The translations under genes and the position numbers were made by a program. The notes below the pieces were generated by a model. The model was not told the DNA's origin. It made no database searches and saw only the letters and a program-made list of their open reading frames with translations. This document shows positions 47,866-63,339 of a DNA stretch of 64,000 bases, one piece after another. Every line of letters starts with the position of its first letter. Within the stretch, counting starts at the first letter, position 1. This DNA comes from Paenibacillus sp. 37 (GTDB lineage: Bacteria; Bacillota; Bacilli; Paenibacillales; Paenibacillaceae). The DNA is taken from assembly GCF_008386395.1 (NCBI RefSeq), contig NZ_CP043761.1:6448001-6512000 (forward strand). The letters are read 5' to 3'.

Positions 47866-48097
47866 ATTTGTCAACATAAAAAACCAAATTTTCTTCTCTT
47901 TTCGTGCTTTATTTGGTCTTTCTCTAGCAGAAATCTCGCTCTTTTCCCAAGTACACATGAGATCTTTTCTCATTCATTCCGCGCACTTTATCACTTCTGA
48001 CTGTCTTTTAAACTCTTGAATCGCAAATTTTGTGTCTGAATTGTGAATGTGTGAGTTTTTTTCATGCAATGGCTGTATAAATTGAACTAAAGGATAG

Positions 48098-48243
48098 TTA
48101 CACTAGCCACTCCGATGACAGAACAACCTTCTGATCGCTGTTATCCCCAGATTTTTTCATCCTTTTTTAGTGGGTACATCCGGGGATAAAGGCGAACGTT
48201 TCACTTCTTCAGGGTATTTCTGCCCTCTCCGTTTTTGTGTAAA
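48098..48243 (+). repeat. Dispersed hairpin element, copy 3
   Basis: Third copy of the ~150-bp element. TTACAC/GTGTAA ends, main stem TTATCCCCAGATTTT against TCCGGGGATAA. Its tip stem is degenerate. It is enclosed by a perfect 10-bp inverted repeat, ATTGAACTAA at 48081-48090 and TTAGTTCAAT at 48246-48255, unrelated to the outer repeat of copy 2. It lies between the ATPase promoter region and the operon terminator. Confidence 0.85.
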
Positions 48244-48283
48244 TGTTAGTTCAATATATTCATCCGCCATATCAAATAAAAAA

Positions 48284-48317
48284 AGATGACCTTGAAATCT
48301 ATAGTTCAAGGTCATCT
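48284..48317 (-). terminator. Terminator of the tubulin/GTPase/VWA operon
   Basis: AGATGACCTTGAA and TTCAAGGTCATCT form a perfect 13-bp stem with an 8-nt loop. On the minus strand it is followed by TTTTTTT. It lies about 105 bp past the last gene of the operon. Confidence 0.9.
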
Positions 48318-48420
48318 CACATACGTTCGTTTAATAAGGTATGAAGCCAGCATTTTTCCTTTTGGATCAAAAGACACTTAATGAATCTATGCAACACGCT
48401 CAAATAATATGATTTACAGC

Positions 48421-51400
48421 TTAATTAGGCTGCGGCATCAATTGGATCACTGTCATATTGCCCTGCGTACTCTTCACACTGACAATGCTCTCGGCATCCA
48501 TATTCGCCGGAAGATCGATCTGCAATCCATACGGATAGAGACGATCTACCTCTCCAATAGACATCTGTGCAGGATTGTTCGCATCCACATCCTGTTCATT
48601 GGATACAGATGTGTCAGGTGATGTGGAACCAGTAACTTGATCTGCATCCGTACCTTGATCCGTGTCTCCACTCGCAGCATTAGACGATCCATTCGTCCCT
48701 GTATCCGTTGTTGTATCGGTAGCAGGATCTGAAGTGGAATCACCTGATGTTGAAGGATCGGCCTGTTGATCGCCATCCTCCGTCTGCTCTGTGTTCCCCG
48801 CGTTTCCCGCTGATGAGCCATCCTTGCTCCCTTCGGAAGTACTTCCTGAACTACTATTGGAAGGAACTTGGTTATCTGGCTCCTCGTTCCGATTAAAACT
48901 CTCCCACTTTCCTGTAGTAACCAACTCCTGAGTACTATCATCCTTCATCGTCAACTGAAGTTTGCCTTGTTCAAACTCAGTGCTTCCCGTATCGTTCCTG
49001 AAACGGATCACCAGTTGAGCAGGTGATTGCGTACCCTCCTGTTCACTCGCAGGAATCATATAAGCAATCTGCTCCGAGAGCTGCACCTCAGGTTCAGCCG
49101 GTATGACAGGCTCCTGGGTAGATGGAGGGGATGCCGCTGGCGGCTCTACAGAATCTTTCATCCATGCATATGTACCGCCCGCAATACCAAGAACCAGGAT
49201 CAAGAGGATTAATCCGAACAGATTTTTCCTTTTACCCGTTAGCATCCGCACCAGTGGAGAGGACAATTCCGTCTTCGCACGGTCATAGACCGGCTTCATT
49301 GTCTTGCTGGCTCTCACGTAATACGGTTTGAAAGCTGACTTCGACTTAAAAGCTTCACGGTCATGGGCTTTGAAATACGCCATGATCGCATCCGCATATC
49401 CTTTATGCACATTGGAACCCCGGACAAACATCCGATGATCTCCTGACCATTCGAAGAATGGATACAGTCCTTCAGCACGACTTGCATTGGTGCGGATGAA
49501 TTCAATCAGGCCGGGATAATCCAACCGATTGCTGCCGCTTCCTCCCCGATAAAAAGCCATCGGTAAAGCTTCATATGCTGCGATCCCCGGATGAGCCTGC
49601 AGCTCTCCGGCAAGCCAGCGACGCGTCCAGCGTTGAAGTTCATTGCGTTCTGCCAGGGAAAGTGCCTCCAATGCCTCTTCTTCATTCCCCTCGCCACTAA
49701 GCCACACTCTCGCAGCCAGCATCATGTTCGTTCGAGCAGATACATCAGAACCTTGACGTGCCGCCCAATCTCGAACCTCATTACCATGCTGCAAAATATC
49801 AATGCTTAACAGCTGTTCACGGTTAACCCGTTCCAGATCCAGATCCTGAATCATAAACAGGTTAATGACATAAGCAAGCTTGTCTGCAAGGCGGGTTAAC
49901 TCCTCCTGATACGCCGGATCTTGACTGGCAGACGGAGATCCCCCTTTGCGATTAGGGCGGGCTGTAGCTTCCGATTGACCAATTCGTGCCGTAATGCCTG
50001 TATCATAAGTGACATCAGCGGATACCCGATCCAGTATACTAACACGCTGGAGGGCTTCATTCGCAGACTGTACCGGATTAGGCGCAGAACATAACCGTTC
50101 ACGCAGCTCATTGGCTGTCCGCTCCTGCAAGAAGCTGTAGTGGATCGCAGATGGATGGGACGTAACCCATCTTCGGATCACTTCAACAACGTTCGCTGCC
50201 GATTCCGTGCGTTTCAGCTGATTGTCCAGATAAGGCTCGAACAACAGCTTGGTAAGCGATTCATTGGCCAGCACTTTATCAAAGAAAGCTTGATTCAGCT
50301 GCGGATCCCGATCCAGCACAGCATACAATTCCTGCACAGCACGCATACGCTTCTGGGCGCGAGCATTATTCACACCGTAGATGAAATAGTCCACAATCCG
50401 GGATTGCACCACTGGCGCGGCAACACTGAAATACTCTCCAATGCGAGCTGCGACGTCTTCTTCGGGTACGTTCTCACGCTTCACGCTGTCCAGTTCCCTG
50501 CTGAGCAAGGTCAGGAACAGCTCGTTCAGACGAGAACGTTGCTGTAATCCACCATCCGGCTTCAAATAGGTCAGCAAGCCACTCAGGACATGACTTTTGT
50601 TATCCAAATACAGGTCTTCCATGCCTTGTTCAAGACCATAGAACACCGCAAGTTCGCCATACGCTTCAATGGAAAGTTCCCGACCAGGCTCCATGCCGGA
50701 CAGCATCTCATCCGCAAATGTATAGAACGCATCCGCCGCACCAGGTTCCTGCAATAAAGCCCAGGCGAATTCCGCATAAGGTAACTTCGCCACAGATGCA
50801 TCCGCATGTGTCACTCTGCCGGATACCAGATCAAAGGTGAAATCCTTCTCCGTATTCCGGTCTTTCGGACGTAACGTCCCCCGCTCTACAAACTGGACGT
50901 GAATGCCCTTCTTGGCCTGCGGCTCCTTGGCAAACGTCATGAATCCCAGTTGCCGCCGGAATGCGTATGGTAAAGCCGTGTACAGCAAACGTAGCAATCC
51001 TTTGGCCCCTGCGGTCACTTCCTCTGCGGGAAGGTCCAGCGCAATGTATACTTTTCTGCGTGTCGCTACAGACTGCATTACCGCATAGAGCAGGCGCTTG
51101 AACAGCACTTCGTTCATCTTCAAGGCGCTCAGCACTTGGATTGGTGATCCTACGCCAGCATCGGTCGCCCCACCCTGTCCGCTCCTAGATGATATAGGCA
51201 ATTCAGCAAGTGCTGGCAGAACTGTACCTTGTTCGATGTCATAGGACGTGGCAAACACGGCATCCAGCCAGCCGCCTTGTTTCATCTGCTCTTCCGAGCG
51301 TTCGGGAGACAAGACGTAATTATGTGCAAAAAAGGCACTGCGCAGCCCGGTGAAATCCGCAGACTGGTACACATTTTGGCCAAGAATCGTCTCTCCACTC

Positions 51401-51639
51401 TCCAGATGAAGCAGGTGAATGGAAGCCGGAAACTTCGTCTCGTCCTTCTCGCTACGGCCTGTTAGCTCCGCTGGAGCGTCATAGACACAGTAGGGGTGAA
51501 GCACTTTTTTGATAAAAGAAGGGTCCAGTCCCGGCGATGCCGCAACCGTATCAAACCCCTCTGTTGTGCGAAACACCCCGCGCCGCTCTCGGGTATACAG
51601 CTGCTGTTCAATGGGCGGGGTTACGGAAGAACGCATCAT
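48421..51639 (-). CDS. GTPase-associated protein, membrane-anchored (GAP1-like)
   Basis: A 1072-residue protein at the end of the operon. The N-terminal region (PPIEQQLYTRERRGVFRTTE, then LDPSFIKKVLHPYCVYDAP) matches my recollection of the GTPase-associated protein 1 N-terminal domain, followed by a large helical middle. No signal peptide. One membrane helix near residues 806-825 follows a basic KRKN, so the first ~800 residues should be cytoplasmic. The last ~250 residues, outside, include a ~100-residue tract of almost only Ser, Thr, Asp, Gly, Asn and Gln, then a short folded end (VDRLYPYGLQIDLPANMD). Its ATG overlaps the stop of the GTPase gene (ATGA), so the two are translationally coupled and probably partners. 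Confidence 0.85.
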   Translation of the reverse strand: MMRSSVTPPIEQQLYTRERRGVFRTTEGFDTVAASPGLDPSFIKKVLHPYCVYDAPAELTGRSEKDETKFPASIHLLHLESGETILGQNVYQSADFTGLRSAFFAHNYVLSPERSEEQMKQGGWLDAVFATSYDIEQGTVLPALAELPISSRSGQGGATDAGVGSPIQVLSALKMNEVLFKRLLYAVMQSVATRRKVYIALDLPAEEVTAGAKGLLRLLYTALPYAFRRQLGFMTFAKEPQAKKGIHVQFVERGTLRPKDRNTEKDFTFDLVSGRVTHADASVAKLPYAEFAWALLQEPGAADAFYTFADEMLSGMEPGRELSIEAYGELAVFYGLEQGMEDLYLDNKSHVLSGLLTYLKPDGGLQQRSRLNELFLTLLSRELDSVKRENVPEEDVAARIGEYFSVAAPVVQSRIVDYFIYGVNNARAQKRMRAVQELYAVLDRDPQLNQAFFDKVLANESLTKLLFEPYLDNQLKRTESAANVVEVIRRWVTSHPSAIHYSFLQERTANELRERLCSAPNPVQSANEALQRVSILDRVSADVTYDTGITARIGQSEATARPNRKGGSPSASQDPAYQEELTRLADKLAYVINLFMIQDLDLERVNREQLLSIDILQHGNEVRDWAARQGSDVSARTNMMLAARVWLSGEGNEEEALEALSLAERNELQRWTRRWLAGELQAHPGIAAYEALPMAFYRGGSGSNRLDYPGLIEFIRTNASRAEGLYPFFEWSGDHRMFVRGSNVHKGYADAIMAYFKAHDREAFKSKSAFKPYYVRASKTMKPVYDRAKTELSSPLVRMLTGKRKNLFGLILLILVLGIAGGTYAWMKDSVEPPAASPPSTQEPVIPAEPEVQLSEQIAYMIPASEQEGTQSPAQLVIRFRNDTGSTEFEQGKLQLTMKDDSTQELVTTGKWESFNRNEEPDNQVPSNSSSGSTSEGSKDGSSAGNAGNTEQTEDGDQQADPSTSGDSTSDPATDTTTDTGTNGSSNAASGDTDQGTDADQVTGSTSPDTSVSNEQDVDANNPAQMSIGEVDRLYPYGLQIDLPANMDAESIVSVKSTQGNMTVIQLMPQPN

Positions 51640-52895
51640 CCCACTCTCCCCTCAATGTACTTCAGCTTGTACAATAGCCATAAGAAGGGTTCATCCACGC
51701 GAATCGGACTAACCACACCCTGCAATTTCATATCCACCGGATTGCTGCCCAGCGCAGAGACTGCGAAATAGGCTGTATCCTTGAAGTACACATCCATCGT
51801 GCCCTTGAACGGGCGGTCCACCTTCTCGATAAAGCGGCGGATCTCCCCATCGATATTCTCGAACTCGGTTAAGTCGAACCAATCGCGGTGAACCATGTTG
51901 CGGAAGACGTTACTGTTGGATTTGATATAATCCCCCTCTTCATCCTTGAGGGAATGCAGCATGTCGCTTTTGGTGAGCACAACAGCTGTGGGAATATTCG
52001 TTTTGGCTTTGTCCTGATACGCGATAAAATCTCCAAACATCGTCAGCACCACGTCGCGTGGCTCATCGTATCGTGGTGTCCACTCTCCCGGCTCGTTGCC
52101 CAGGTTAATGCGGATTTTGTCCCGAATCGAACGAATCTGAAGCGGGTCCACCATGAACAGGATACCTGCCGAGTTCTTGATGTGCTGCCCGTGAAGTCCG
52201 AGATAATCCTGCTCCACCATACCTTCACCCGCAACGTCAAAGAATACCAGTGTCAGCGGCGCTTTATCTTCGTCCTTGAACACAAACTGGAAGATAAACG
52301 GCTCCTGCAACTTTTCCTTCTGTGTGGAATCCAGCAGATCGCCCCGTTCAAACAACGGTTCTTCATAATCCGCACGGAACCGGCGGCTGATCTCCGCATT
52401 CAATGGCATGCAAGCCGCGTCAAAATGATCAGCCGTATAATGCTGCAATGTATGAATTAATGAAGTCATGTAGACGGATTTCCCCACCTGGGATGCACCG
52501 ATAATGGAAATGATATTGCTGGGTGCTTTACCTGCCGTAACAGGTAGCTCGTTATGACATTGCGGACACAACCGGCGGCGTGTAACGACACCATACCGAT
52601 CATTCAGCCCCATCACGATGTTATCGGAATAAATACGGTGTTCCTCCGGTACATCATGCGGAGCCAATACGGCCTCCATATCAAATACCGTGTCAAGTCC
52701 GAACCTTTCGCGATACCGATTCAACTTTGCATCTTCCCCGAGTGCGTAGTCCTCATCATCATCGCGGTGATGGGCGGCGCGGAACACTACCTCTTCCGGT
52801 GAAAACTTACTGAAACAATAAGGGCACACAATATCATAAAACAGCGGACGTTCCTCCGGCTGTTGTCTCTTCAAAAACCGACTAAAAAAGCTCAT
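51636..52895 (-). CDS. Zinc-ribbon TRAFAC-class GTPase (double-GTPase family-like)
   Basis: A GTPase of about 419 residues; the start at 52895 (MSFFSRFLKR) follows GGGGAG. Two Cys pairs, C24PYC27 and C110PQC113, form a zinc ribbon split by ~80 residues. The GTP site is complete: P-loop GASQVGKS at residues 133-140, G3 motif DVAG at 220-223 and base-recognition TKSD at 308-311. This matches the DO-GTPase2 type that occurs with GAP1-like proteins and tubulin-like proteins (recollection). No membrane helix. It is coupled to the next gene by a 4-nt overlap. Its role may be that of a nucleotide switch acting on the tubulin-like protein or its membrane partner (inference). Confidence 0.9.
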   Translation of the reverse strand: MSFFSRFLKRQQPEERPLFYDIVCPYCFSKFSPEEVVFRAAHHRDDDEDYALGEDAKLNRYRERFGLDTVFDMEAVLAPHDVPEEHRIYSDNIVMGLNDRYGVVTRRRLCPQCHNELPVTAGKAPSNIISIIGASQVGKSVYMTSLIHTLQHYTADHFDAACMPLNAEISRRFRADYEEPLFERGDLLDSTQKEKLQEPFIFQFVFKDEDKAPLTLVFFDVAGEGMVEQDYLGLHGQHIKNSAGILFMVDPLQIRSIRDKIRINLGNEPGEWTPRYDEPRDVVLTMFGDFIAYQDKAKTNIPTAVVLTKSDMLHSLKDEEGDYIKSNSNVFRNMVHRDWFDLTEFENIDGEIRRFIEKVDRPFKGTMDVYFKDTAYFAVSALGSNPVDMKLQGVVSPIRVDEPFLWLLYKLKYIEGRVG

Positions 52896-52932
52896 AGCCA
52901 CTCCCCTCCCCTGATCAGTCAGACTAAGGTGA

Positions 52933-52980
52933 TTTACACTTGCACTACGATGACAGAGTAACATTCCAATCGCTAGTCCA
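52933..52980 (+). repeat. Dispersed hairpin element, truncated copy
   Basis: TTTACACTTGCACTACGATG, then GACAGAGTAACATTCCAATCGCTAG, matches the first ~50 bp of the ~150-bp element; the stem and 3' part are gone. It lies in the 90-bp gap between the 215-residue gene and the GTPase gene. CAGACTA at 52920 and TAGTCTG at 52987 flank it as a 7-bp inverted repeat. Confidence 0.65.
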
Positions 52981-52985
52981 ACTAT

Positions 52986-53633
52986 CTAGTCTGATATAAG
53001 CCTATAGGCGGCTCCATATTTCGGTCCGTCCGTGAAGAATAATCGCACATAATCATCCTTGGCAACTTCAACGGGCGGCATCTCATTTCTTCCGGGAGCA
53101 AAATTACTCACAAAAGGATACACCGTACCATCTTCCTTATTGAGCGGTACCCCGCCCTGTTTGCGAACATAACAGAGGGCTTCCTTTGGAACAGGTACTT
53201 CCGCTGTGACGGTGATCAATACACTTTTTCGTTTCTGAAAAAAACCGCTCTTGTAGCGAATAGAAAAGCGGATATCCGCCTTCCCTGCGCTTGCAATCAC
53301 CATGTTGTCCTCGTCTCGTTGACGGATCAGCACAGGACCTTCTTCCTCCATCTGACACACATACACTGTGTACTTGATGGCACCAAAACCCGTGATCCGA
53401 TCCGTGTAACCATTGCTCGCCTTATATTCCTCTCTCGTGTACAACTTCAGCTTGCCCTGTGCAGGCTCTTCTCCGGTACGATCATCGCTCATCATATCTA
53501 GCTCCAGCCGTTCCACATACACAGCTTCTACCCGTTCCGGCCAGAGCCAGCGAAGTGTACAACGTCCTTCGTCCACCGCAAGTGTCAGTTTTCGAATCAA
53601 GGGTGTCGAAGGGTCTGCATCCGTAAATCGCAT
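52986..53633 (-). CDS. Unrecognised 215-residue protein in the tubulin/GTPase operon
   Basis: The start is taken at 53633 (MRFTDADPST), which has GGGAGG nine bases upstream; the open frame extends to 53774 but would overlap the end of the preceding gene. No family recognised. The sequence is dominated by alternating hydrophobic residues and Thr/Lys/Glu (LTLAVDEGRCTLRWLWPERV; ADIRFSIRYKSGFFQKRKSV), suggesting one or two beta-sandwich domains, with no membrane helix or signal peptide. It follows the membrane VWA gene by 19 bp, and the truncated repeat separates it from the GTPase gene. A scaffold or adaptor role in the complex is only a guess. Confidence 0.82.
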   Translation of the reverse strand: MRFTDADPSTPLIRKLTLAVDEGRCTLRWLWPERVEAVYVERLELDMMSDDRTGEEPAQGKLKLYTREEYKASNGYTDRITGFGAIKYTVYVCQMEEEGPVLIRQRDEDNMVIASAGKADIRFSIRYKSGFFQKRKSVLITVTAEVPVPKEALCYVRKQGGVPLNKEDGTVYPFVSNFAPGRNEMPPVEVAKDDYVRLFFTDGPKYGAAYRLISD

Positions 53634-53652
53634 TTCCATTGACCTCCCGACG

Positions 53653-54936
53653 TTAGAATCCTTTGCTGCGTGTATCTCTTGGTCTCTGACCAAACCCTTC
53701 GGCAGAAGAAGTTCCGCCGCCAGCTTCACGACGACCCCGGCTCTTCCGCGGCGTGTTTTCCTTAATCGGAACAATCCAGGAGAAGAGGGTCAACACGCCA
53801 GACAAAATTAGTATCGCACCGAGTCGTACAAATGTATCACCCACGTTCGAGCCGTCGAGTCCCCATTCCAGCAGAAGCCCTGCCAGTAGACCCGACACCG
53901 CACCACCAATACCGAAGCTTAACGCAAGGTGACGGTTATCGAATACGAGTCCGAGTGATACACCTAGTGCTACTCCAATCAGCAGAACGGCTGCCACACG
54001 GAAAATCGCCAGATAAACGCTATGTTCCATCATACCTGTACGCTCCGTCACCAGCGTCCGTTCATCGATCGTATCGTAGATCTGCTGGAATGCCAGATTC
54101 AGACCACCGGAATCCGGTACATCATAGTACATGCCACCCGTTTGCTGAGCAATATTACGCAACAGATCCGTACCCGATGGGTCCACCAGGCTTAGGCCCA
54201 CCGTATTGATGGAAATCTGTTCACTGCTATATTGGGACAAAATATCTGCCGTATCCGCTTCACTGAAGCCATCGGATAACAAGATGACGACCGTACCACG
54301 TTTCGGGTCCTGTTTGCCCTGAATCTGTTCCATGCCTTCCCGCAGCACGGCATCAAAATTGGTGCCGCCCGAAGTTGTGACAATACCATCGATTTTGCTA
54401 TAAACCTCATTCTTGGCCGTTTCACTATCCAGCGCAATAAACGACTGTAACAACTGCGGCTGGTCATCAAACGTAATGACAGCTACCTGTTTGTCACTCT
54501 CCATTTGGCTGATCAGTGTCTTGGCTGCTTCAAAGCGTCCGTTATCCGGATCTGTCTCGCTCATGCTGCCCGAGTTGTCGATCATCAGTACGATGTCCTT
54601 CACTTGCTTCACACCGCCCGGATTGATCTGATACAACAATTGCAGAGCGAGTCCAACAACAAATAACAGAGCCAGCGTTGCCGGAACAAGCAATTTCCAC
54701 GACAGTCCCAGATATCGAAGCTTCCATGATGCGCCATTCAGCTTGGGTGAGATCATCTCTGCGATCAAACAGAATAACCCCACACTCAGCGCCAGTACGC
54801 CAAAGTATAAGCCCATCAGCAACAGACGCGGCATTTCCCCAAGCCATTGACGCAGCATGATTTCCCCTGCCGCAAAGCCCACTGCCCCGCCAATCAGGCT
54901 GAACAGGACCAGGAGAAGATTGATTTTTCGCTGCAT
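53653..54936 (-). CDS. Membrane VWA-domain protein with six helices
   Basis: About 427 residues; start taken at 54936 (MQRKINLLLV), though an upstream in-frame ATG or GTG is possible. Three helices (about 6-26, 37-60, 81-103) precede a von Willebrand A domain with a full metal site: D120-x-S-x-S in MIDNSGSMSE, T192 in SGGTNFD and D222 in LLSDGFSE. Three more helices follow, then a basic C-terminal tail (KENTPRKSRGRRE). With the basic tails inside, the VWA domain lies on the outer face. It is the fourth gene of the operon. VWA domains bind proteins through a metal ion; the partner is unknown. Confidence 0.9.
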   Translation of the reverse strand: MQRKINLLLVLFSLIGGAVGFAAGEIMLRQWLGEMPRLLLMGLYFGVLALSVGLFCLIAEMISPKLNGASWKLRYLGLSWKLLVPATLALLFVVGLALQLLYQINPGGVKQVKDIVLMIDNSGSMSETDPDNGRFEAAKTLISQMESDKQVAVITFDDQPQLLQSFIALDSETAKNEVYSKIDGIVTTSGGTNFDAVLREGMEQIQGKQDPKRGTVVILLSDGFSEADTADILSQYSSEQISINTVGLSLVDPSGTDLLRNIAQQTGGMYYDVPDSGGLNLAFQQIYDTIDERTLVTERTGMMEHSVYLAIFRVAAVLLIGVALGVSLGLVFDNRHLALSFGIGGAVSGLLAGLLLEWGLDGSNVGDTFVRLGAILILSGVLTLFSWIVPIKENTPRKSRGRREAGGGTSSAEGFGQRPRDTRSKGF

Positions 54937-55022
54937 GTCCACATGCATCCTTTCCATACCAGCCGTAAGCAGGCTGAGTTAATACAAGATTGTAGCAGGG
55001 TGTCATGACACAGCCAGACATC

Positions 55023-57470
55023 TTAACGGATGGGTGACAACTTTTCCGCCAGACCTGCGGGGTGAAGTTCATATCCATTCTCCGTGTACGAGTCATAATA
55101 TACCTTGCCGTTCCGATACACCATGAGATCCTCCAGATGGAAACCGCCCATCAGATTCAGCTTCTCCACACCACTGCTGCGTTCTTCGTACACCACACCC
55201 AGCTTGTAGATGCGTGACGTCTCTTCGGCATGCGCCGCGTAGTCCATGAATGCACTATGATGGTCACCAAAGAAGTACTTCTCTTCATACCGATGTTCCT
55301 GCGTATAATCGAATACCCGTACCCGAACGACCGCCTGATCCTCCAGCGTGTGGTACAACCTGCGGAACAGATCATCCCGGGTCAATACATCTTTGTCTCC
55401 GTAGGCAATCGTTACATTGGCCCGCTGCAACAGCTCTTCTTCAAATGGCAATCGCAACGGCTCGGCCGTAAGCAGCAACGAGTGACATACCTCCATCAGA
55501 CGTTGCAGCAGACGGTCATCGCCTTCTGTGGCAAGACGGTTCATGTCTCCCATGTAACGGTCCTCAAACCATACATCCCGTCCGCGCTTGGCTTCCAGCT
55601 CGATGATTAGCTCTTCCGTCACTTTGCCGTAGTACTCCATCACGTTCTGGCCGATGTATTCATCCGCAGCGGCAATACTTTGGGCAGCTGTCTCTCGCAG
55701 TGTGCGTTCCAGCGCTTCAAGTGCTGCCGTGACGTGGCGACTATAACGGTGAAGCTCTTCCAACTCCGTATCGTAGATGCGCAGAAGATGTAATTCATTT
55801 TCCAGACGCAGCAATTCTACCTTCGGTACATACACTCGCTCCAGCATGCAGTCAATCAGATTGCGTACATTCTGTTTATCACGGAACAACGCTCGTTTGA
55901 ACGACTGATCTTCCACCCGCTCTTGCTGACGTTGCTCCAGCAGGGCACGTGCCGATTCAAGCTGCATCGATTTATCCCGAATCAGTCCGAGCAGCGCTTC
56001 ACGTACACTGCCAGGCTCACTGTCACTCCAGGCTGCCCACTGGAAGTAACCAACCTCTGGATGCTCCGCGCGGGATTGTTCGGCCTGACGGCACAGAGAG
56101 CCGCCAGAACTGCGCTCGCGCACACGCTCTTCGACAAGACGGACGACGTTATCACGGAAGTACGCTTCAGCGCCTTGTCCGAACAACGCTCTCTCCGCTT
56201 CACGAAGCGAGAGTGGCTTCAGATCGGAGAAACTGACGTTATGCGTCATGATGCCACTCATGCCACTAACCAGATCTTCACTCGGCAGCAGGCCTTCAAC
56301 TTTACGTTCCACCGAGGCCGCGTCCAGTCCGAAGAAAGCGAGCTTGTCCTTGATGCTCCAATCCGGCTCCTGCCGCATGCGTGCGAGCAGATACCGATAC
56401 ATGTGATATAACACCGCCAGTGCTATCGGCTTGTTTGGCCGCCTGATCTCGGCAAAACCCGCACTTGCATAACCATGCTGATCAGAGGTGGTGCGAATAT
56501 TGTTTTTGAAGGATGTATTGTTGTATGTGTTCGCTCCCGTGCTTGAAACGCTACCCGAGTGATTTGCATCCTGCTTCCGGTTCTTCAACAGGCAGATCCG
56601 GCAGATGATCTCGGCATTTTCGATCCAGCCACCGGGAACGCCGGTTCCACGCTCATTTTTGTCGGACAACAGATATACAAGATCATACAACGGGGACGCG
56701 TGATGTGTAACGGGAATGGAGATCCCATCCTCCGTCACCAGCAGATTACCGCTGAACGTGTAGTCCAGCGACTGCATATAATCCAGCTCCCTTAGAAAAG
56801 CAAGGCCTGCTGCGCTGGCATACCCGAAGGAATCCACTTGTTCCATCTCGCTGACCAATACATGCAGATCCGTTTGCACCGACTTGAAGGCTTGGGACAA
56901 AATGATCTCCGTCAGCTTGGTGAGCTCTGGCAACAATACATTCAGCGGATCATCCGCCCTGGTTACCACCGTAACGTAAATCCGATCAAATGACGAGTAC
57001 AGCCGTCCATATTCGGCAATCCGGTTACTGACCCGACGAAGCGTACGATTCAGATCAAAGAGCGCCTGATCCGATTCGTGGAAACTGCGATGTACATCCT
57101 TACGCCGTGTTTTGGACGGTCGCTCCGTCTGCCCAGCGAACAGAGGCAAGCGGTGACGAGTCACCTGACCGTCATCGGACGAGCCACCAGTCCTCGTTTC
57201 ACCCGAACCCGCTTCCTGATCTTCTGTCCCAATCTGAACGTAGACCACACCGTCTCCGTTATCCCATTTCAGCCGATTGATCTCCTGCACAGCAGACACG
57301 GCAGGTGCAACCAGATCACCCACGAAAAGGAACAAAGCCGGGTAATGGATACTGCTGCGTCCATCCCCCAGGCTGCCTTGACGCTCCTGCTCTATTGCAT
57401 ACTGTGCTGCATACTTCTCCAGATCGCGCTTCAGGGTATTGTTCGAATTGAACTCCATCCCGGTCACCAT
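55023..57470 (-). CDS. Unrecognised 815-residue protein downstream of the tubulin-like gene
   Basis: The ATG at 57470 lies directly after the tubulin-like gene's stop, with AGAAGG upstream, so the two are tightly coupled. No family recognised. An N-terminal segment (HYPALFLFVGDLVAPAVSAV, then VVYVQIG) looks like a Rossmann-type beta-alpha start. A middle segment of ~35 residues rich in Asn, Ser and Thr looks disordered, and residues about 540-680 are long amphipathic helices (EALERTLRETAAQSIAAADE). No membrane helix or signal peptide. Gene order and coupling make it a likely structural partner of the tubulin-like protein (inference). Confidence 0.85.
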   Translation of the reverse strand: MVTGMEFNSNNTLKRDLEKYAAQYAIEQERQGSLGDGRSSIHYPALFLFVGDLVAPAVSAVQEINRLKWDNGDGVVYVQIGTEDQEAGSGETRTGGSSDDGQVTRHRLPLFAGQTERPSKTRRKDVHRSFHESDQALFDLNRTLRRVSNRIAEYGRLYSSFDRIYVTVVTRADDPLNVLLPELTKLTEIILSQAFKSVQTDLHVLVSEMEQVDSFGYASAAGLAFLRELDYMQSLDYTFSGNLLVTEDGISIPVTHHASPLYDLVYLLSDKNERGTGVPGGWIENAEIICRICLLKNRKQDANHSGSVSSTGANTYNNTSFKNNIRTTSDQHGYASAGFAEIRRPNKPIALAVLYHMYRYLLARMRQEPDWSIKDKLAFFGLDAASVERKVEGLLPSEDLVSGMSGIMTHNVSFSDLKPLSLREAERALFGQGAEAYFRDNVVRLVEERVRERSSGGSLCRQAEQSRAEHPEVGYFQWAAWSDSEPGSVREALLGLIRDKSMQLESARALLEQRQQERVEDQSFKRALFRDKQNVRNLIDCMLERVYVPKVELLRLENELHLLRIYDTELEELHRYSRHVTAALEALERTLRETAAQSIAAADEYIGQNVMEYYGKVTEELIIELEAKRGRDVWFEDRYMGDMNRLATEGDDRLLQRLMEVCHSLLLTAEPLRLPFEEELLQRANVTIAYGDKDVLTRDDLFRRLYHTLEDQAVVRVRVFDYTQEHRYEEKYFFGDHHSAFMDYAAHAEETSRIYKLGVVYEERSSGVEKLNLMGGFHLEDLMVYRNGKVYYDSYTENGYELHPAGLAEKLSPIR

Positions 57471-57471
57471 C

Positions 57472-60400
57472 TTACTTCAGCCTTCTGCGAATGTCGTTCA
57501 GCTTGGACGACATCGTTCTGTAGAACTGATAGATATCTTCTCCGTTAGCCAGTTCTACCCGCTCATATTCCAGACGATCACGTGATTCCATAAACAGCGC
57601 AGCCAGATCATCCAGCTTTGTCAGCAGTGGGGTGATATCCTCTGAAGCCGTGAGATCGTTATCGCGGCGGGAGGCTTTGCGCAGCAATGTACTACGATCC
57701 TTCTCCGCCAGACCGCGGAAGTTGCCAAACACTTCATACTCGGCAAAGTTACGGCTCTTCATCAGGTTTGCGAACGGCTCCCATGCGTCTTCTTCCGGGT
57801 CACGGTCATAGACGTAGAGCGCACCTTTTTTGACGATGGTGTCAGTATATAACGCTTCGATGAAGCGGTCATACCACTGCTCTTCGTCTTGGTACTGGGC
57901 AAGAATGCCTTCGAGTTCCGCAACTTTGGCCGAGATGGCATTCATCTTTGCCAGTTCCTCACGTACACGTGCGATCAGCTGCGGGGAGCGTACCAGGTTT
58001 TCTTTGGCCATATCTTCATTAATACTTCCGAAAATATCCTTAACTCCTACACGTGGCAACCCTTCGGATTGCAGACGTTTCAACTCAATCACCGCCCGCT
58101 TCACTTCGCCGAGGTTCGGCGTGGTGGACGTCAGACGCATGTCGTAGGCAGCCAGTTTGGCGGACAAGTCAAATGCTTCTGTTGTCACAATCGCATATCG
58201 GTTGCTTGTATTCTCATCAATGGATTTGGCTGTCACAATGTTGTATCCGAGCGCCTGCTCGAACTCGTTACGCACACGAGCATTATATTGCTTCACACGG
58301 GCGTTCTCGTATACATCTCCCCATGATTTCTCTGGAATCGGAGATGGCAGATAGGTCCAGTTGTTTTTCTCCGTTTGCACCAAGTGACGACCAATGCCTT
58401 CTTTGTCCAAAATGGTACGTTCATAACTTTCCTCATATACCTTGAGCGGTGTATACACAAAGAGTGGTACCCCGTTGCGTGTATTCAGCCAGAAGATCCG
58501 GTTACGCACTTCACTTTCCTTAACGGTAAAATGAGATTTGCCTACCGCATTGTTCTGATAATTACGAATCCCTTTCAGAATGCCTGGTGCCTGTGCCGGT
58601 ACGGATACAAATCCCCATGAAGGGAAATGCAGACTGCCTGTACTGTTGCTCAGATTGAACACCGGAACGGCCTCATCATCCAGCTTGCCAGCAATGAAAC
58701 GTTCCACGAATTTTTCAACCGACTCATCCTGACCGTATTTGATCACCAGGAAATCTTCCATGGAACGGGTAATCAGATCGCCGAATTTCTCACTCAGGAA
58801 GTCGGAGATGGAGCTGACGATATCAATCTCGTTCTCTTTCACCCACTGGCTGGAGTTTTCCAGCAATTCACGGGAGAAGTCGCGGATCAGATCATCTGTA
58901 TCACGCTTATCCAACAGCCCGTCCACCACACTGACGATATCCGGTACACTTACAACGTTCCAGTAATATGTTTTGTTGCCTTTGTGATCGGCTTGTTCTT
59001 CGCCGCGTGTCAGCAGGTCACCGTTCTTGGCAAATATCGAGCTAAGGGCATTCAGCGTTTCGGTAAATACGTTATAAATGCGGCTGTTTTCCTGGTTCAG
59101 CAACTCATACAGATCTTCATAGAACTCGATCATCTGATCGTTACGTTCCACGTCGGCGTGCAGCCAATACTCATGAATTTTTGCTTCAATATAAGCATTC
59201 TTTTTCTTCTCTTTGGAGACAAACGCACTCTTTGCATCGCCCAGTTTCTCTTCGGACTGCTCCTGAGCTGCTTCAATATCACGCGGAATGCGGAAGGCAT
59301 TCTCACGCAGGGTTTCGATGTACGACTGAATCATCTTCAGTACACAGAATCCTTTTTCCGTATATATGAGACGGGATACATAGAACGGACCTTGTTCGGG
59401 ATGCAAAAACATACGCCGGATCTGTTCGGTGAACTGACCGGCAATCTCACCCGGCAGCTGTTTCTTCGCCTTGATATATTCCTCGCGGGCACGCGCCAGG
59501 AAGTTCTGTTCCAGTTCGGTGTCCATATTCACAACCTGGGATTTCACCACGTTGCCATAGGATAAACGCTCGCTGTTCTGATAACCAGGTAGCGGCTCTG
59601 GCACGCGGGCTTCAAAGGACTTGACCACACTTTCGAGATCAATGCCCAGCTTGCGGGCAAACTTCTCGGTATCCTCCTGGTTTGGCGCTTTGGAGAACAT
59701 GGTGTTCATTTTGTCGAACATGCGATACGCCAGATAGGTGGTCATCTCTTCAATCGGTAGTACAGCCGAAGATGCACCAATGATGTTGTAATCATAGTTA
59801 GCCGGGTACACCTTGTTCATCTGTGCGATGTTGGTTCGAATGTTGCTGATATAGTCATGGATCGCGAACTCCTCACCCGACTGCTTCTCCTCACTTGCCA
59901 TGAAGTTGGTAATGTTCTCGGCCGTGACGTTCATGCAGTAATCGTAGGCGTTCTCCAGCAGTTTGCCCTCGGTATTCGTCGCAGAGATCAGATGACACAG
60001 GTTAAATGGCGGCAGTGGTGAGTTGACGGTTAAAATATTGCCGTACTTCTGTGTAAACCGCTCACCGCGGCTATCCACGTTCATCCAGTAATCCAACTCT
60101 TTGAGCGCAGCATATCCGTTCTTGCGAATGTATTCGCGCGTGTGTTCGCTCAAGCTTTTGTTGGACAGGTTCACGTCTGGTGTGAACAGGTAGCCCAGCG
60201 TATTCACGCGGTCAATCCCGGCAGAGCCATGATCCCGTTCGATAATGCCGCGCACGATATAGGAAATATCGAGGAAACAGCCACTGCCTGTACCGCCGGA
60301 CAGACCTGTCAGCAGGAACACCATCAGTTTTTTGTTGGTGCCTACGGATAAGGTTTTAATCTTTTTGTCGATAGCCTGCACGACCTGATTAATTTTTGTG

Positions 60401-60861
60401 AACAAGAGCAGACGTCCAGCCTGACGCACACCTGCGGCGCCGTTCATGCCGTCCGTGATGCTCAGTTCGGGAGACAGCCAGTCCGTAATATACGGTTCCA
60501 GCACGCTGCGGTTCTGTAGAAGCCCGCCGATCTCGGCATTGGACAGCAATACGAATTCATTGATCGGATCAAGTCCGATTCCTTTATACTTTTTGGCACG
60601 ATCCTGTTCGTTTGTCTCAAAAGCCAGAAACTCCACATTGTCCGGCTTGTCCATTTTTTTCTTGGATACCGGGTCCTGTGGCAGCTTGAAACGACGGTTG
60701 ATCTGATATTTGAGACGCAACAGTGCGTCAATTCCCGTTCCCCCCAGACCAATAATCAGAATGGGGTTATCAATGGTATCAACTCTGATCTTCTCACTGA
60801 CAATACCTCCGCCAAGTGATACATCCAGTTGCTGAATATGTTCTCTAACAATCGGTTTCAT
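57472..60861 (-). CDS. Tubulin-like protein (Tubulin_2-like), 1129 residues
   Basis: A large cytoplasmic protein of the bacterial 'tubulin-like' group. The nucleotide-binding region is clear: IIGLGGTGIDALLRLK at residues 36-51 and, after ~140 residues, the tubulin/FtsZ signature loop in TGLSGGTGSGCFLD (G189-G-T-G-S-G194). Between them, NEQDRAKKYK and LLSNAEIGG suit the T2/T3 loop region. The remaining ~800 residues, without any membrane helix, are predicted largely helical and are far longer than FtsZ (~400). Whether it polymerises is unknown. GGAGG precedes the ATG. It is the second gene of the operon, separated from the secreted VWA gene by 278 bp that contain repeat copy 4. Confidence 0.9.
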   Translation of the reverse strand: MKPIVREHIQQLDVSLGGGIVSEKIRVDTIDNPILIIGLGGTGIDALLRLKYQINRRFKLPQDPVSKKKMDKPDNVEFLAFETNEQDRAKKYKGIGLDPINEFVLLSNAEIGGLLQNRSVLEPYITDWLSPELSITDGMNGAAGVRQAGRLLLFTKINQVVQAIDKKIKTLSVGTNKKLMVFLLTGLSGGTGSGCFLDISYIVRGIIERDHGSAGIDRVNTLGYLFTPDVNLSNKSLSEHTREYIRKNGYAALKELDYWMNVDSRGERFTQKYGNILTVNSPLPPFNLCHLISATNTEGKLLENAYDYCMNVTAENITNFMASEEKQSGEEFAIHDYISNIRTNIAQMNKVYPANYDYNIIGASSAVLPIEEMTTYLAYRMFDKMNTMFSKAPNQEDTEKFARKLGIDLESVVKSFEARVPEPLPGYQNSERLSYGNVVKSQVVNMDTELEQNFLARAREEYIKAKKQLPGEIAGQFTEQIRRMFLHPEQGPFYVSRLIYTEKGFCVLKMIQSYIETLRENAFRIPRDIEAAQEQSEEKLGDAKSAFVSKEKKKNAYIEAKIHEYWLHADVERNDQMIEFYEDLYELLNQENSRIYNVFTETLNALSSIFAKNGDLLTRGEEQADHKGNKTYYWNVVSVPDIVSVVDGLLDKRDTDDLIRDFSRELLENSSQWVKENEIDIVSSISDFLSEKFGDLITRSMEDFLVIKYGQDESVEKFVERFIAGKLDDEAVPVFNLSNSTGSLHFPSWGFVSVPAQAPGILKGIRNYQNNAVGKSHFTVKESEVRNRIFWLNTRNGVPLFVYTPLKVYEESYERTILDKEGIGRHLVQTEKNNWTYLPSPIPEKSWGDVYENARVKQYNARVRNEFEQALGYNIVTAKSIDENTSNRYAIVTTEAFDLSAKLAAYDMRLTSTTPNLGEVKRAVIELKRLQSEGLPRVGVKDIFGSINEDMAKENLVRSPQLIARVREELAKMNAISAKVAELEGILAQYQDEEQWYDRFIEALYTDTIVKKGALYVYDRDPEEDAWEPFANLMKSRNFAEYEVFGNFRGLAEKDRSTLLRKASRRDNDLTASEDITPLLTKLDDLAALFMESRDRLEYERVELANGEDIYQFYRTMSSKLNDIRRRLK

Positions 60862-60922
60862 TCCATGTCCTCCTTTGATTAACGCACATATGCTTCAATC
60901 TATACAATTCAAACTAAAGAAA

Positions 60923-61073
60923 TTTACACTTGCCACTCCGATGACAGAACAACCTTCCGATCGCTGTTATCCCCAGATTTTTTCAATTCACTTTTACAAA
61001 GTGAAAATCCGGGGATAAAGGCGAACGCTTCCGCTTCTTCACGTTATTTCCGTCCTCTGCGTTCTCGTGTAAA
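60923..61073 (+). repeat. Dispersed hairpin element, copy 4
   Basis: Fourth copy, in the gap between the tubulin-like and secreted VWA genes. Ends TTTACAC/GTGTAAA. Main stem TTATCCCCAGATTTT against AAAATCCGGGGATAA with one mismatch. The tip stem is TTCACTTT/AAAGTGAA, where C-G of copies 1 and 2 is replaced by A-T on both sides, a compensatory change. Confidence 0.87.
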
Positions 61074-61139
61074 CAGTTGGTCCCAAATTTTATTGGCATT
61101 CCTTTTAAACCAAACAATCAATTTAAATCAAATAATCCT

Positions 61140-62933
61140 TCACACCAGATACTCAATTAAAATGGTCTTGTCCGCCTGTTGCAGCGGGATGCTCAGTCGG
61201 TCACCGTTCTTCAGTTCAACGCCTGAGCTTGCATCGACTGCACGACCGGATTTCTCCAGCGTACCGCCTGCGGTGTTACGGATGATAATTCGATCCCCAT
61301 TGCTGGGCGTAAATACATATTTTTCGGTTTCCTTCAGCTCAGGGTCCAGCTGCAATAACTGGTGCAGATGGAATCGGCCCCGGAAGGATACCAGCTTTTT
61401 ATATTGTGGATATGACTTGTCGCCCGTGTTCTCATCACGAATCTCAACGATCATCTGACCGACAAAGCCCCGGTTTTTGCGTTTCAGCCAACCCATCAGG
61501 AACCAGACACCAACACCGACCACAATCAGGGCTACAACACCCAGAATGACAGGTAACCAAGGGAACGGCTTCTCTTGTTCACCGCCTGGCGTGGTCGGTT
61601 GAGCACCGCTTCCGGTTGCTCCGCCTGCATTAATCGTGATTGGCGCACTTTCACGGTAGAAGCTGTCTTCTTCCGCACGGATGACCAATTCATAGTTATG
61701 TTTGTCCGGTACTTCAAACGTTCCGGCAAAACCAGAACCTGTATTGTCCAGGGGTTGTTCTTCACTCTTGCCTGTATCCACATCTTTCACGACCAGCGTG
61801 GCTTTCATATCTGCATACAGATCATTATCCTGAAGTGGCTGACCGCCATTCTCCAGTTTGGCCGCAAGATCAACCTTGTCCCCTTTGGTATAGGACTTGG
61901 TCTTAATTGGGTCCACAACGAGCTGAAGATCATAGTTGAACAACAGGTTGATATCGATGCTGTCTTTCGGAGCCCCTTTTACCCGAAGTTTCCAGTCTCC
62001 CTCTTGGGGTTTCAACAGCTTCACGAGCGAATAACTCTTCGATGTTGAGAGCTTGGCTGCATCCGAGTTCAGGTCCACAGTTTGTCCGGAAGGGTCCATC
62101 AATTGCACTTCCACCGGCTTCGAGGACATAATCGAGATGTTTGCTTCCAGCACACTGTCATTTGGCACGTTCACGGTAACTTCCTGATAACTGCCGTTTC
62201 CTGTTACAGAGGGCAGCTTCACCACATTGAGTTTGGCATGATCGGCGAAGATCTCACTCAGAATCTGTGGCAGATCATCCGGCGTATCGGTAATGAATGA
62301 CTTGCCTCCGGTCTGCTTCGCGAGGTCTGCGAGTGCATCCTTGTTCAACTTGCCATCCGCGTTCAGTCCTATTGTATACACCGGGATACCTTGATCCTGT
62401 GCTTCCTTCACGGATTTCGCCAGATCAGCGTCGGATTGTGCCTGTGTACGGCCTTTGGTTTTGTTAAAATCATTGTTGCCATCCGCCAGCAGCACGATCA
62501 TTGGCGAGTGAGACGGATCTGCACCATGATTCAGTATGTTGACGGCTTCGGCGACACCAACTGAGACATCGGTGTATGGCCCCCGGCCGAGCTGATCAAT
62601 AAAATCCTTCAGGCTGCTCTTGTCCGCATCGGACTGAATCGTAAGCATAGCCTTTTCCCGCTCCACCTGATCGGTATAAGCTACAATCCCTACCTTGTCC
62701 CCTTGAACGGGTAACATATCAATAAACATTTTCATGGCTTCATTACTGATCTTGTCACGGTCACTTGTATTCATTGAGTTACTTACATCGGCTACAAGTA
62801 CCGCATCGATTCCGCTCGTCTGTGCCTGAGCCGCTGCAGCATGTGGCAGCAACGCCTGAGGTAGCAGTATCGTTAGAATGGCCAGCAGAACCATCGTTCC
62901 GCTCAGCCAGCGTATTTTGCGTGTCCGCAGCAT
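61140..62933 (-). CDS. Secreted VWA-domain protein with membrane anchor
   Basis: About 597 residues; the start at 62933 (MLRTRKIRWL) follows AAGGAG. A signal peptide (AILTILLPQALLP, AAA site near residue 35) is followed by a VWA domain with D49-x-S-x-S (VADVSNSMN), T121 (GPYTDVSVG) and D151 (LLADGNND). Beta-rich segments of ~220 residues follow, then one membrane helix near residues 458-480 and a basic KRKNRG, so the VWA part is outside. The C-terminal ~110 residues inside (GDRIIIRNTAGG; LKNGDRLSIPLQQADKT) resemble an FHA-like beta domain. It is the first gene of the operon, directed away from the zinc-ribbon gene pair. Confidence 0.9.
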   Translation of the reverse strand: MLRTRKIRWLSGTMVLLAILTILLPQALLPHAAAAQAQTSGIDAVLVADVSNSMNTSDRDKISNEAMKMFIDMLPVQGDKVGIVAYTDQVEREKAMLTIQSDADKSSLKDFIDQLGRGPYTDVSVGVAEAVNILNHGADPSHSPMIVLLADGNNDFNKTKGRTQAQSDADLAKSVKEAQDQGIPVYTIGLNADGKLNKDALADLAKQTGGKSFITDTPDDLPQILSEIFADHAKLNVVKLPSVTGNGSYQEVTVNVPNDSVLEANISIMSSKPVEVQLMDPSGQTVDLNSDAAKLSTSKSYSLVKLLKPQEGDWKLRVKGAPKDSIDINLLFNYDLQLVVDPIKTKSYTKGDKVDLAAKLENGGQPLQDNDLYADMKATLVVKDVDTGKSEEQPLDNTGSGFAGTFEVPDKHNYELVIRAEEDSFYRESAPITINAGGATGSGAQPTTPGGEQEKPFPWLPVILGVVALIVVGVGVWFLMGWLKRKNRGFVGQMIVEIRDENTGDKSYPQYKKLVSFRGRFHLHQLLQLDPELKETEKYVFTPSNGDRIIIRNTAGGTLEKSGRAVDASSGVELKNGDRLSIPLQQADKTILIEYLV

Positions 62934-63195
62934 TAGGTGTACTCCTTCACGTTTGAGATTAAAATGGGAATAGTTTATTATAGGCGTCAAGCCTTAAGGA
63001 AATCTTAACAGTCTACTAATAAATTCTGAAAAGCACCCCTATCTTGAGTTACAGTTTTGTAATGACTGACAAAAATCGACGATTTCATGCCCTGAACTGG
63101 CACAAAAGTACCAACTATGGAAATATGATATAGTTATTGCCAGCAAACTGCAATATAACAGCGCTTGTTCACCAAGCCATAGAAGGGAACGGATT

Positions 63196-63339
63196 ATGGT
63201 TACATACGGATGCCTCGCCATATTGTTTCTTTTTGTCATCATAAAGGTAATTTCACTCCAGCTTCATCGGCGAAAACCGGTCTCCCGCGAAGACACGGAT
63301 CGTACCCTCTACACTATTCTGAATGGTGAGCGTGATTGA
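63196..63339 (+). CDS. Small membrane protein, 47 residues
   Basis: ATG at 63196 behind AGAAGGGA; stop at 63337-63339. The product starts MVTYGCLAILFLFVII (one membrane helix) and ends with a basic/acidic tail (LHRRKPVSREDTDRT). No family recognised. It overlaps nothing and its stop is 2 bp before the next gene, so the two are coupled. It diverges from the tubulin/GTPase/VWA operon. Confidence 0.72.
   Translation: MVTYGCLAILFLFVIIKVISLQLHRRKPVSREDTDRTLYTILNGERD

What the first reader, a model, noticed from the sequence alone, without database searches (positions are those of the whole stretch)
48421..62933. Seven-gene operon joining a tubulin-like protein, a zinc-ribbon GTPase, a GTPase-associated protein and two VWA proteins
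Seven same-strand genes, several with 4-nt overlaps or gaps under 25 bp, run to one strong terminator (48284). Seen directly: tubulin GGTGSG loop (57472-60861), complete P-loop/DVAG/TKSD GTPase (51636-52895) and two complete VWA metal sites. Established families: Tubulin_2-like, double-GTPase and GAP1-like domains have been noted together in predicted NTP-dependent conflict systems. Inference: this is one complex that couples nucleotide-driven switching or polymerisation in the cytoplasm to surface recognition. Two of its members (815 and 215 residues) match nothing I recognise.
Basis: partly seen in the sequence, partly recalled or inferred. Interest (0 to 1): 0.92.

Follow-up and report, generated by a model that had tools for sequence, protein, structure and literature searches.

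The report
Tubulin–GTPase envelope operon of Paenibacillus
This bacterium carries a conserved set of genes that seems to link tubulin-like proteins and a molecular switch inside the cell to adhesion-type domains outside it; the kind was predicted earlier from sequence alone, and here the set turns out to be larger and more stably inherited than that prediction suggested.

Summary
The seven-gene operon is real but of a known kind: the GAP1-N2 / double-GTPase "tubulin theme" that Kaur et al. (2020) predicted in Firmicutes, with a tubulin of the FtsZl1 / Tubulin_2 family (Makarova & Koonin 2010). Both "unrecognised" proteins are placed. The 815-aa one is most likely the second tubulin-like protein, without the GTP loop in 77 of 77 relatives. 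The 215-aa one is a tandem fibronectin-III protein.

New here: the system does not stop at 62933. A divergent operon belongs to it: a 47-residue membrane microprotein (63196-63339), a zinc-ribbon membrane protein (from 63342) and, in some relatives, a ~600-aa membrane-anchored protein. The first two were adjacent in 87 of 87 loci with the zinc-ribbon gene, and fused into one reading frame in one.

In the genus, 66 of 75 genomes have tubulin, GAP1-N2 and zinc-ribbon gene; the other 9 lack all three (one has a marginal hit). The set follows gyrB for the most part, is under purifying selection (tubulin and GTPase as conserved as GyrB) and holds no variable effector gene inside the operon. That favours a stable envelope-associated GTP-controlled scaffold over the published "conflict system" reading; no experiment settles it.

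The parts
61140..62933 (-). g1: VWA protein, signal/TM 7-25, VWA outside, TM 462-480, conserved ~115-aa cytoplasmic tail
   Evidence: PF00092 E 4e-14; hydrophobicity and flanking charges; tail at 0.73-0.83 majority identity, as well kept as the VWA part
57472..60861 (-). g2: tubulin-like (FtsZl1 / Tubulin_2) protein, both phosphate loops intact
   Evidence: PF13809 E 8e-76; loops in 78 of 80 relatives, the 2 exceptions being a long ORF call and a frameshifted record; dN/dS 0.006-0.019
55023..57470 (-). g3: second tubulin-like protein, degenerate, no T4 GTP loop; long helix 531-602 in the model
53653..54957 (-). g4: VWA protein, six predicted TM segments, VWA between the third and fourth (outside)
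   Evidence: PF00092 E 3e-18
52986..53633 (-). g5: tandem fibronectin-III domains, no TM segment predicted, so probably cytoplasmic
51636..52895 (-). g6: double-GTPase family (DO-GTPase2) with N-terminal CxxC...CxxC
   Evidence: PF19993 E 9e-7; P-loop, DVAGE and CxxC..CxxC in 75 of 75, TK[SAC]D in 63 of 75
48421..51639 (-). g7: GAP1 (GAP1-N2, GAP1-M), TM 807-825, polar extracytoplasmic tail
   Evidence: PF20013 E 1e-41, PF20014 E 3e-25; TM; tail is its fastest-changing part
48283..48318 (-). intrinsic terminator of the operon
   Evidence: 14-pair stem then T run
62977..63008 (-). predicted operon promoter: direct repeat TTAAGA-N5-TTAAGG, 9 nt, -10 TATAAT
   Evidence: score of 15 or more of 18 in 41 of 79 upstream regions (21 of 59 outside the window's clade) against 2 of 395 shuffles; the pattern was drawn from the window and one relative
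63196..63339 (+). divergent gene 1: 47-aa membrane microprotein (hydrophobic N-terminal half)
   Evidence: profile hit in 87 of 87 loci with the zinc-ribbon gene (9 of the 10 profile seeds come from these loci), ATG at the aligned start in 85; pN below pS; fused to the zinc-ribbon gene in L084
63342..64000 (+). divergent gene 2: 310-aa zinc-ribbon membrane protein (runs on past the window to window-equivalent 64274)
   Evidence: adjacent in 78 of 78 named loci with enough DNA; CxxC..CxxC 78 of 78; same 66 of 75 congeners as tubulin and GAP1-N2

Best explanation
This is the Paenibacillaceae form of the GAP1-N2 / double-GTPase system with tubulins. Shown: one co-inherited set of seven genes plus at least two divergent ones. 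Inferred: it is an envelope-spanning, GTP-controlled scaffold. On the cytoplasmic face the GTP-binding tubulin g2 assembles with its partner g3, which has lost the GTP loop (a tubulin / pseudo-tubulin pair). The zinc-ribbon GTPase g6 is the on/off switch and docks on GAP1 (g7), helped by the fibronectin-III adaptor g5. Membrane proteins (g1, g4, the g7 tail, the zinc-ribbon protein and its microprotein) tie the scaffold to metal-binding VWA domains outside, so that a change at the wall or membrane alters scaffold assembly, or the reverse. The likely role is standing maintenance or remodelling of the envelope, under a response regulator, rather than phage defence.
For: Family assignments. Same set and order in 72 of 80 named loci, the other 8 cut by ends, and in 9 of 10 other genera of the family fetched. 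The same 66 of 75 congeners have Tubulin_2, GAP1-N2 and the zinc-ribbon gene, and the other 9 lack all three (G044 has a zinc-ribbon hit of E 7e-4 only). In 398 genomes of the phylum the zinc-ribbon gene occurs in exactly the 7 with both others. Microprotein and zinc-ribbon protein are one reading frame in L084, a natural fusion. Over 39 distant loci g2 distances correlate with six other members at r 0.86-0.92 and members with gyrB at 0.47-0.64, p 0.001; g7 was not in that test. dN/dS 0-0.14 for eight genes in 7 comparisons each, 3 of 56 not computable and many dS above 1. Mean amino-acid distance: g2 0.167, g6 0.146, GyrB 0.158. No effector gene inside the operon: 27 extra same-strand ORFs of 60 aa or more lie in 18 of 72 complete loci; those over 118 aa are pieces of the set's own interrupted genes, and the rest do not recur beyond near-identical strains. 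Topology. Conserved promoter with paired half-sites. Among 10 neighbouring proteins only ATPase/helicase cross-hits and two weak hits to defence models.
Against: No experiment; assembly, GTP hydrolysis and partner choice are inferred. In the family only 130 of 245 genomes have a Tubulin_2 match, 127 over the cut-off, and 9 of 75 congeners lack the set, so it is dispensable. The g3-tubulin link is weak by profile comparison (hhalign 17% and 3% probability), the g3 model has mean pLDDT 63, and glucose-6-phosphate dehydrogenase chains tie with tubulins, one ranking first. 12 of 75 g6 relatives miss TK[SAC]D. 11 of 31 strong operon splits are not in the gyrB tree, 3 of them in conflict with supported gyrB splits. 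Flanking genes differ between clades.
Confidence: 0.5

Rival explanations
1. It is a biological conflict (immune) system as Kaur et al. predict: the outer domains or GAP1 sense an invader, the GTPase sets a threshold, and the tubulins form a lethal or blocking assembly.
For: Homologous core; absence of the whole set in 9 of 75 congeners; the GAP1 outer tail is the fastest-changing part.
Against: No variable effector gene inside the operon in 72 complete loci; purifying selection in every gene; mostly vertical inheritance; no convincing PADLOC model for the seven (best E 0.016) and none specific for 10 neighbours. The tubulins themselves could still be the effector, and effectors outside the operon were not sought.
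Confidence: 0.3
2. g2 and g3 form a dynamic (cytomotive) filament that moves or constricts membrane, close to what Makarova and Koonin proposed for FtsZl1, and the GTPase and VWA proteins only anchor it.
For: FtsZl1 / Tubulin_2 family with intact loops; VWA and GTPase neighbours as in that paper.
Against: That paper could not identify T6-H7 elements or a known C-terminal domain in the family; g3 lacks the GTP loop; no filament is shown.
Confidence: 0.15
3. The genes are neighbours by chance or share only a promoter.
For: A repeat separates g1 from g2 in the window and flanks differ between clades.
Against: Order and strand kept in ten genera at 37-83% median identity, all-or-none presence, correlated evolution.
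Confidence: 0.02

Closest known systems
GAP1-N2 type double-GTPase systems, tubulin theme of Firmicutes (Kaur et al. 2020, eLife 9:e52696, PMC7159879; sections 27 and 29 read in full, other parts as passages)
   Same: Zinc-ribbon DO-GTPase, GAP1-N2 with TM and polar tail, fibronectin-III component, two tubulin-domain proteins, two vWA proteins, one with several TM helices and extracellular vWA.
   Different: The text read does not mention the divergent microprotein, zinc-ribbon membrane protein or third divergent gene, nor a lost GTP loop in the second tubulin; its figures and source data were not seen. It calls the neighbourhoods mobile with highly variable components; here they are stable and mostly vertical. 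The YtkA domain said to be fused to one vWA protein was not detected.
FtsZl1 family and its vWA/GTPase neighbourhood (Makarova & Koonin 2010, PMC2875224; parts 1-2 of 5 read)
   Same: [quoted passage not shown] vWA and GTPase neighbours; membrane proteins. That Tubulin_2 is this family is stated in a passage of PMC9871819.
   Different: No OmpA or kinase gene in the operon; a second, degenerate tubulin; GAP1 and fibronectin-III proteins.
Tubulin / FtsZ / TubZ / CetZ superfamily
   Same: Nucleotide-binding loops of g2; fold of the g3 N-terminal domain, with the reservations given.
   Different: No sequence relative of g2 in the PDB at E 0.1 or better; g2 itself was not folded.

Membership tests
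GAP1-N2 double-GTPase system, tubulin theme (Kaur et al. 2020) | TRAFAC GTPase with glutamate in Walker B and N-terminal zinc ribbon(s) | tested here: met
   DO-GTPase2 over its cut-off; DVAGE and CxxC..CxxC in 75 of 75; one pair of CxxC knuckles seen, two ribbons not shown
GAP1-N2 double-GTPase system, tubulin theme (Kaur et al. 2020) | GAP1 with N2 and M domains, encoded downstream of the GTPase | tested here: met
   g6/g7 overlap by 4 nt
GAP1-N2 double-GTPase system, tubulin theme (Kaur et al. 2020) | fibronectin-III protein | tested here: met
   g5 model matches tandem FN3; no Pfam FN3 hit by sequence
GAP1-N2 double-GTPase system, tubulin theme (Kaur et al. 2020) | two tubulin-domain proteins | tested here: met
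   g2 clear; g3 by 16 of 19 relatives and by fold, profile comparison with g2 weak
GAP1-N2 double-GTPase system, tubulin theme (Kaur et al. 2020) | two vWA proteins, one multi-TM with extracellular vWA | tested here: met
   (topology by hydrophobicity only)
GAP1-N2 double-GTPase system, tubulin theme (Kaur et al. 2020) | other vWA protein fused to YtkA | tested here: inconclusive
   no YtkA match up to E 1 in Pfam for g1 alone
Biological conflict system (functional label of Kaur et al.) | highly variable effector components | tested here: not met
   no effector-like extra gene inside the operon in 72 complete loci; purifying selection in all eight genes
Biological conflict system (functional label of Kaur et al.) | protects against an invader | not testable with these tools
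   needs a phage assay
FtsZl1 (Makarova & Koonin 2010) | FtsZ-like N-terminal domain with GGTGSG loop | tested here: met
FtsZl1 (Makarova & Koonin 2010) | extended coiled coil after the FtsZ-like domain | not tested
   no coiled-coil prediction was run on g2
FtsZl1 (Makarova & Koonin 2010) | GTP-dependent assembly (not shown for the family either) | not testable with these tools
   biochemistry needed

The most novel reading that the evidence does not exclude
In Paenibacillaceae this is a stably inherited apparatus of nine to ten genes (seven plus a divergent pair or trio with a 46-51-residue membrane microprotein) in which a GTP-binding tubulin always pairs with a tubulin that has lost GTP binding. 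It is an envelope-spanning cytoskeletal machine under response-regulator control, not an immune system.
Probability: 0.4. Interest if true: 0.78.

Novelty: new member of a known kind. Interest (0 to 1): 0.55.

Why it matters
Such systems were proposed in 2020 to be immune devices, and I saw no experiment on them (later paper searches failed, so this is no claim that none exists). Here is a common form in a culturable genus with defined parts and wider boundaries, a testable tubulin/pseudo-tubulin pair, a small membrane protein that is easy to overlook, and evolutionary evidence that points away from an arms race. The choice between envelope machine and immunity becomes testable by one deletion series.

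Tried and rejected
Effector genes inside the operon: 27 extra same-strand ORFs of 60 aa or more in 18 of 72 complete loci; the two over 118 aa in L088 and the one in L140 are pieces of the set's own interrupted genes, and only near-identical strains share any other. A remnant of the third divergent gene in the window's genome: nothing convincing; no match in 75 congeners, a search without a positive control. A direct sequence relation of g3 to g2: hhalign weak. One of 77 g3 proteins has a GxGGxG string in its first 120 residues (L077, GAGGAG), outside the expected place. Solved structures related by sequence: none convincing for g2, g3, g6, g7. PADLOC on the seven proteins: best E 0.016. RNA families and tRNAs in the window: none. 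A first check of vertical descent, by similarity to the window's own genes alone, showed no correlation with GyrB among 40 distant loci for seven genes and a negative one for g5 (rho -0.45). A first all-against-all matrix gave r near 0.1 because the GyrB of L103 had been translated in a wrong frame. The corrected matrix is. Over all 60 complete loci the correlation with g2 among distant pairs was lower (0.62-0.73) than among the distant loci. One promoter alignment was uninformative. A distal TTGNAN-N17-TATCAT block was read by eye only and is not claimed. Failed paper searches mean that later literature was hardly searched. Read: PMC2875224 parts 1-2 of 5; PMC7159879 sections 27 and 29 in full plus passages; PMC9871819 and PMC5898192 passages only.
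Full report
WHAT IS THERE. The window lies in an unnamed Paenibacillus genome (G000, 7.6 Mb) close to P. amylolyticus and P. xylanexedens (g2 identical to within rounding in L062-L067). Seven genes on the minus strand run from 62933 to 48421 and end in a 14-pair terminator at 48318-48283. Three of six junctions are tight (4-nt overlap, gaps of 1 and 19 nt); the others are 65, 90 and 278 nt. The 278-nt gap between g1 and g2 holds an interspersed repeat with 44 listed matches in the genome (40 of 185 candidates scored).

THE SET IS LARGER. In 78 of 78 named loci with enough DNA a zinc-ribbon membrane protein (about 310 aa) lies divergently upstream of g1. Directly before it, ending within a few bases of its start in most loci, is a small membrane protein. 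A profile of ten sequences, nine of them from these loci, finds it in 87 of 87 loci with the zinc-ribbon gene (78 named, 9 from other genera), 46-51 residues in 86 of them; amino-acid-changing differences are rarer than silent ones (pN 0.04-0.15 against pS 0.15-0.60 in seven comparisons). In the 87th, L084, the frame runs on for 376 codons into the zinc-ribbon protein: the two are fused. Downstream of the zinc-ribbon gene, 35 of 80 named loci and 5 of 9 other genera carry a membrane-anchored protein, mostly 578-677 aa. It was not detected in 75 congeners of the window, a search without a positive control.

HOW IT IS INHERITED. In 75 genomes of the genus the same 66 have Tubulin_2, GAP1-N2 and the zinc-ribbon gene, and the other nine lack all three (one of the nine, G044, has a marginal zinc-ribbon hit). 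In 245 genomes of the family 130 have a Tubulin_2 match (127 over the cut-off), in 11 of 19 genera. In 398 genomes of the phylum, 7 have all three genes and all are in this family; Tubulin_2 alone matches in 7 more (3 under the cut-off) and GAP1-N2 alone in 3 more (1 under). Ten other genera of the family were fetched: nine have the same eight genes in the same order, one (G546) has only a distant tubulin. Five stretches from outside the family lack the set; one of them has a VWA gene beside its tubulin. Of 80 named loci (the best 80 of 345), 72 show all eight genes in order and 8 are cut by ends; in four of the eight the GAP1 frame is open to the last base held. Against gyrB in 46 of the 47 genomes reached (49 handles given, of 80 loci; L098 dropped because one gene of the set was incomplete), distances correlate (r 0.48-0.64, p 0.001). 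20 of 31 strongly supported operon splits are in the gyrB tree and 3 conflict with a supported gyrB split. Six members correlate with g2 at r 0.86-0.92 over 39 distant loci. Outer flanks are not shared between clades. I read this as mainly vertical descent with some local transfer and changed surroundings.

HOW IT EVOLVES. Against seven close relatives dN/dS is 0.006-0.019 for g2, at most 0.013 for g6, 0.02-0.10 for g1, g3, g4, g5 and the zinc-ribbon gene, and 0.11-0.14 for g7; three of the 56 comparisons could not be computed and many dS values exceed 1. Over 39 distant loci the mean distance is 0.146 for g6, 0.167 for g2 and 0.158 for GyrB, but 0.35-0.52 for the other five compared. The outer tail of g7 changes fastest, whereas the inner tail of g1 is well kept. 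Inside the operon there is no effector-like extra gene.

TOPOLOGY AND CONTROL. By hydrophobicity g1 has an outer VWA domain and an inner tail, g4 an outer VWA domain among six TM segments, g7 a TM at 807-825 with an outer tail, and g2, g5 and g6 none. One segment of g3 (43-61) scores slightly, but in the model it begins with the first strand of the tubulin-like domain. A predicted promoter with a direct repeat TTAAGA-N5-TTAAGG, 9 nt and TATAAT lies at 63008-62977. Sites scoring 15 or more of 18 occur in 41 of 79 upstream regions, 21 of them among the 59 outside the window's clade, against 2 of 395 mononucleotide shuffles. The pattern was drawn from the window and one relative. Its spacing recalls PhoP or WalR boxes of Bacillus (recalled, not tested).

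MECHANISM. Shown: composition, order, co-inheritance, conservation. Inferred: the switch g6 acts through g7; g2 and g3 assemble on the inner face; g1, g4, the g7 tail and the divergent membrane proteins connect this to the wall. The published immune reading (Kaur et al.) rests on neighbourhood logic, with highly variable components as a hallmark; that hallmark is not met here. The membrane-remodelling reading (Makarova and Koonin) fits better. I give the envelope-scaffold reading 0.5 and the conflict reading 0.3.

NOVELTY. The seven-gene kind is published. What I did not find in the text read (Kaur sections 27 and 29; Makarova parts 1-2) are the divergent genes, the lost GTP loop of the second tubulin and the evolutionary tests. 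Their figures and supplements were not seen, and later literature could not be searched.

Noticed in passing
window 60905-61080 and 48080-48260; genome-wide: An interspersed repeat of ~160 bp with strong hairpin folding (z -3.9) and 44 listed matches in the genome (40 of 185 candidates scored); one copy lies between g1 and g2, one after the operon.
   Followed up: partly
relatives of g3 and g5 in public databases: Many close relatives are named 'transcription initiation factor TFIID' (g3) and 'beta-mannanase' (g5) by their sources; neither name fits the folds found here.
   Followed up: yes
L084 (Paenibacillus anaericanus): Microprotein and zinc-ribbon protein form one 376-codon frame, a natural fusion of the two divergent genes.
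   Followed up: partly
G546 (locus L151): A member of the same family carries a Tubulin_2 protein without any of the other genes found by the profiles.
   Followed up: no
G037, G054, L088, L140: Copies with the tubulin, GAP1 or other genes of the set split or interrupted: decaying copies or sequencing errors.
   Followed up: no
L154-L156, L157-L158: Other Bacillota have Tubulin_2 without GAP1-N2, or GAP1-N2 with the GTPase but without tubulin, in different neighbourhoods.
   Followed up: partly
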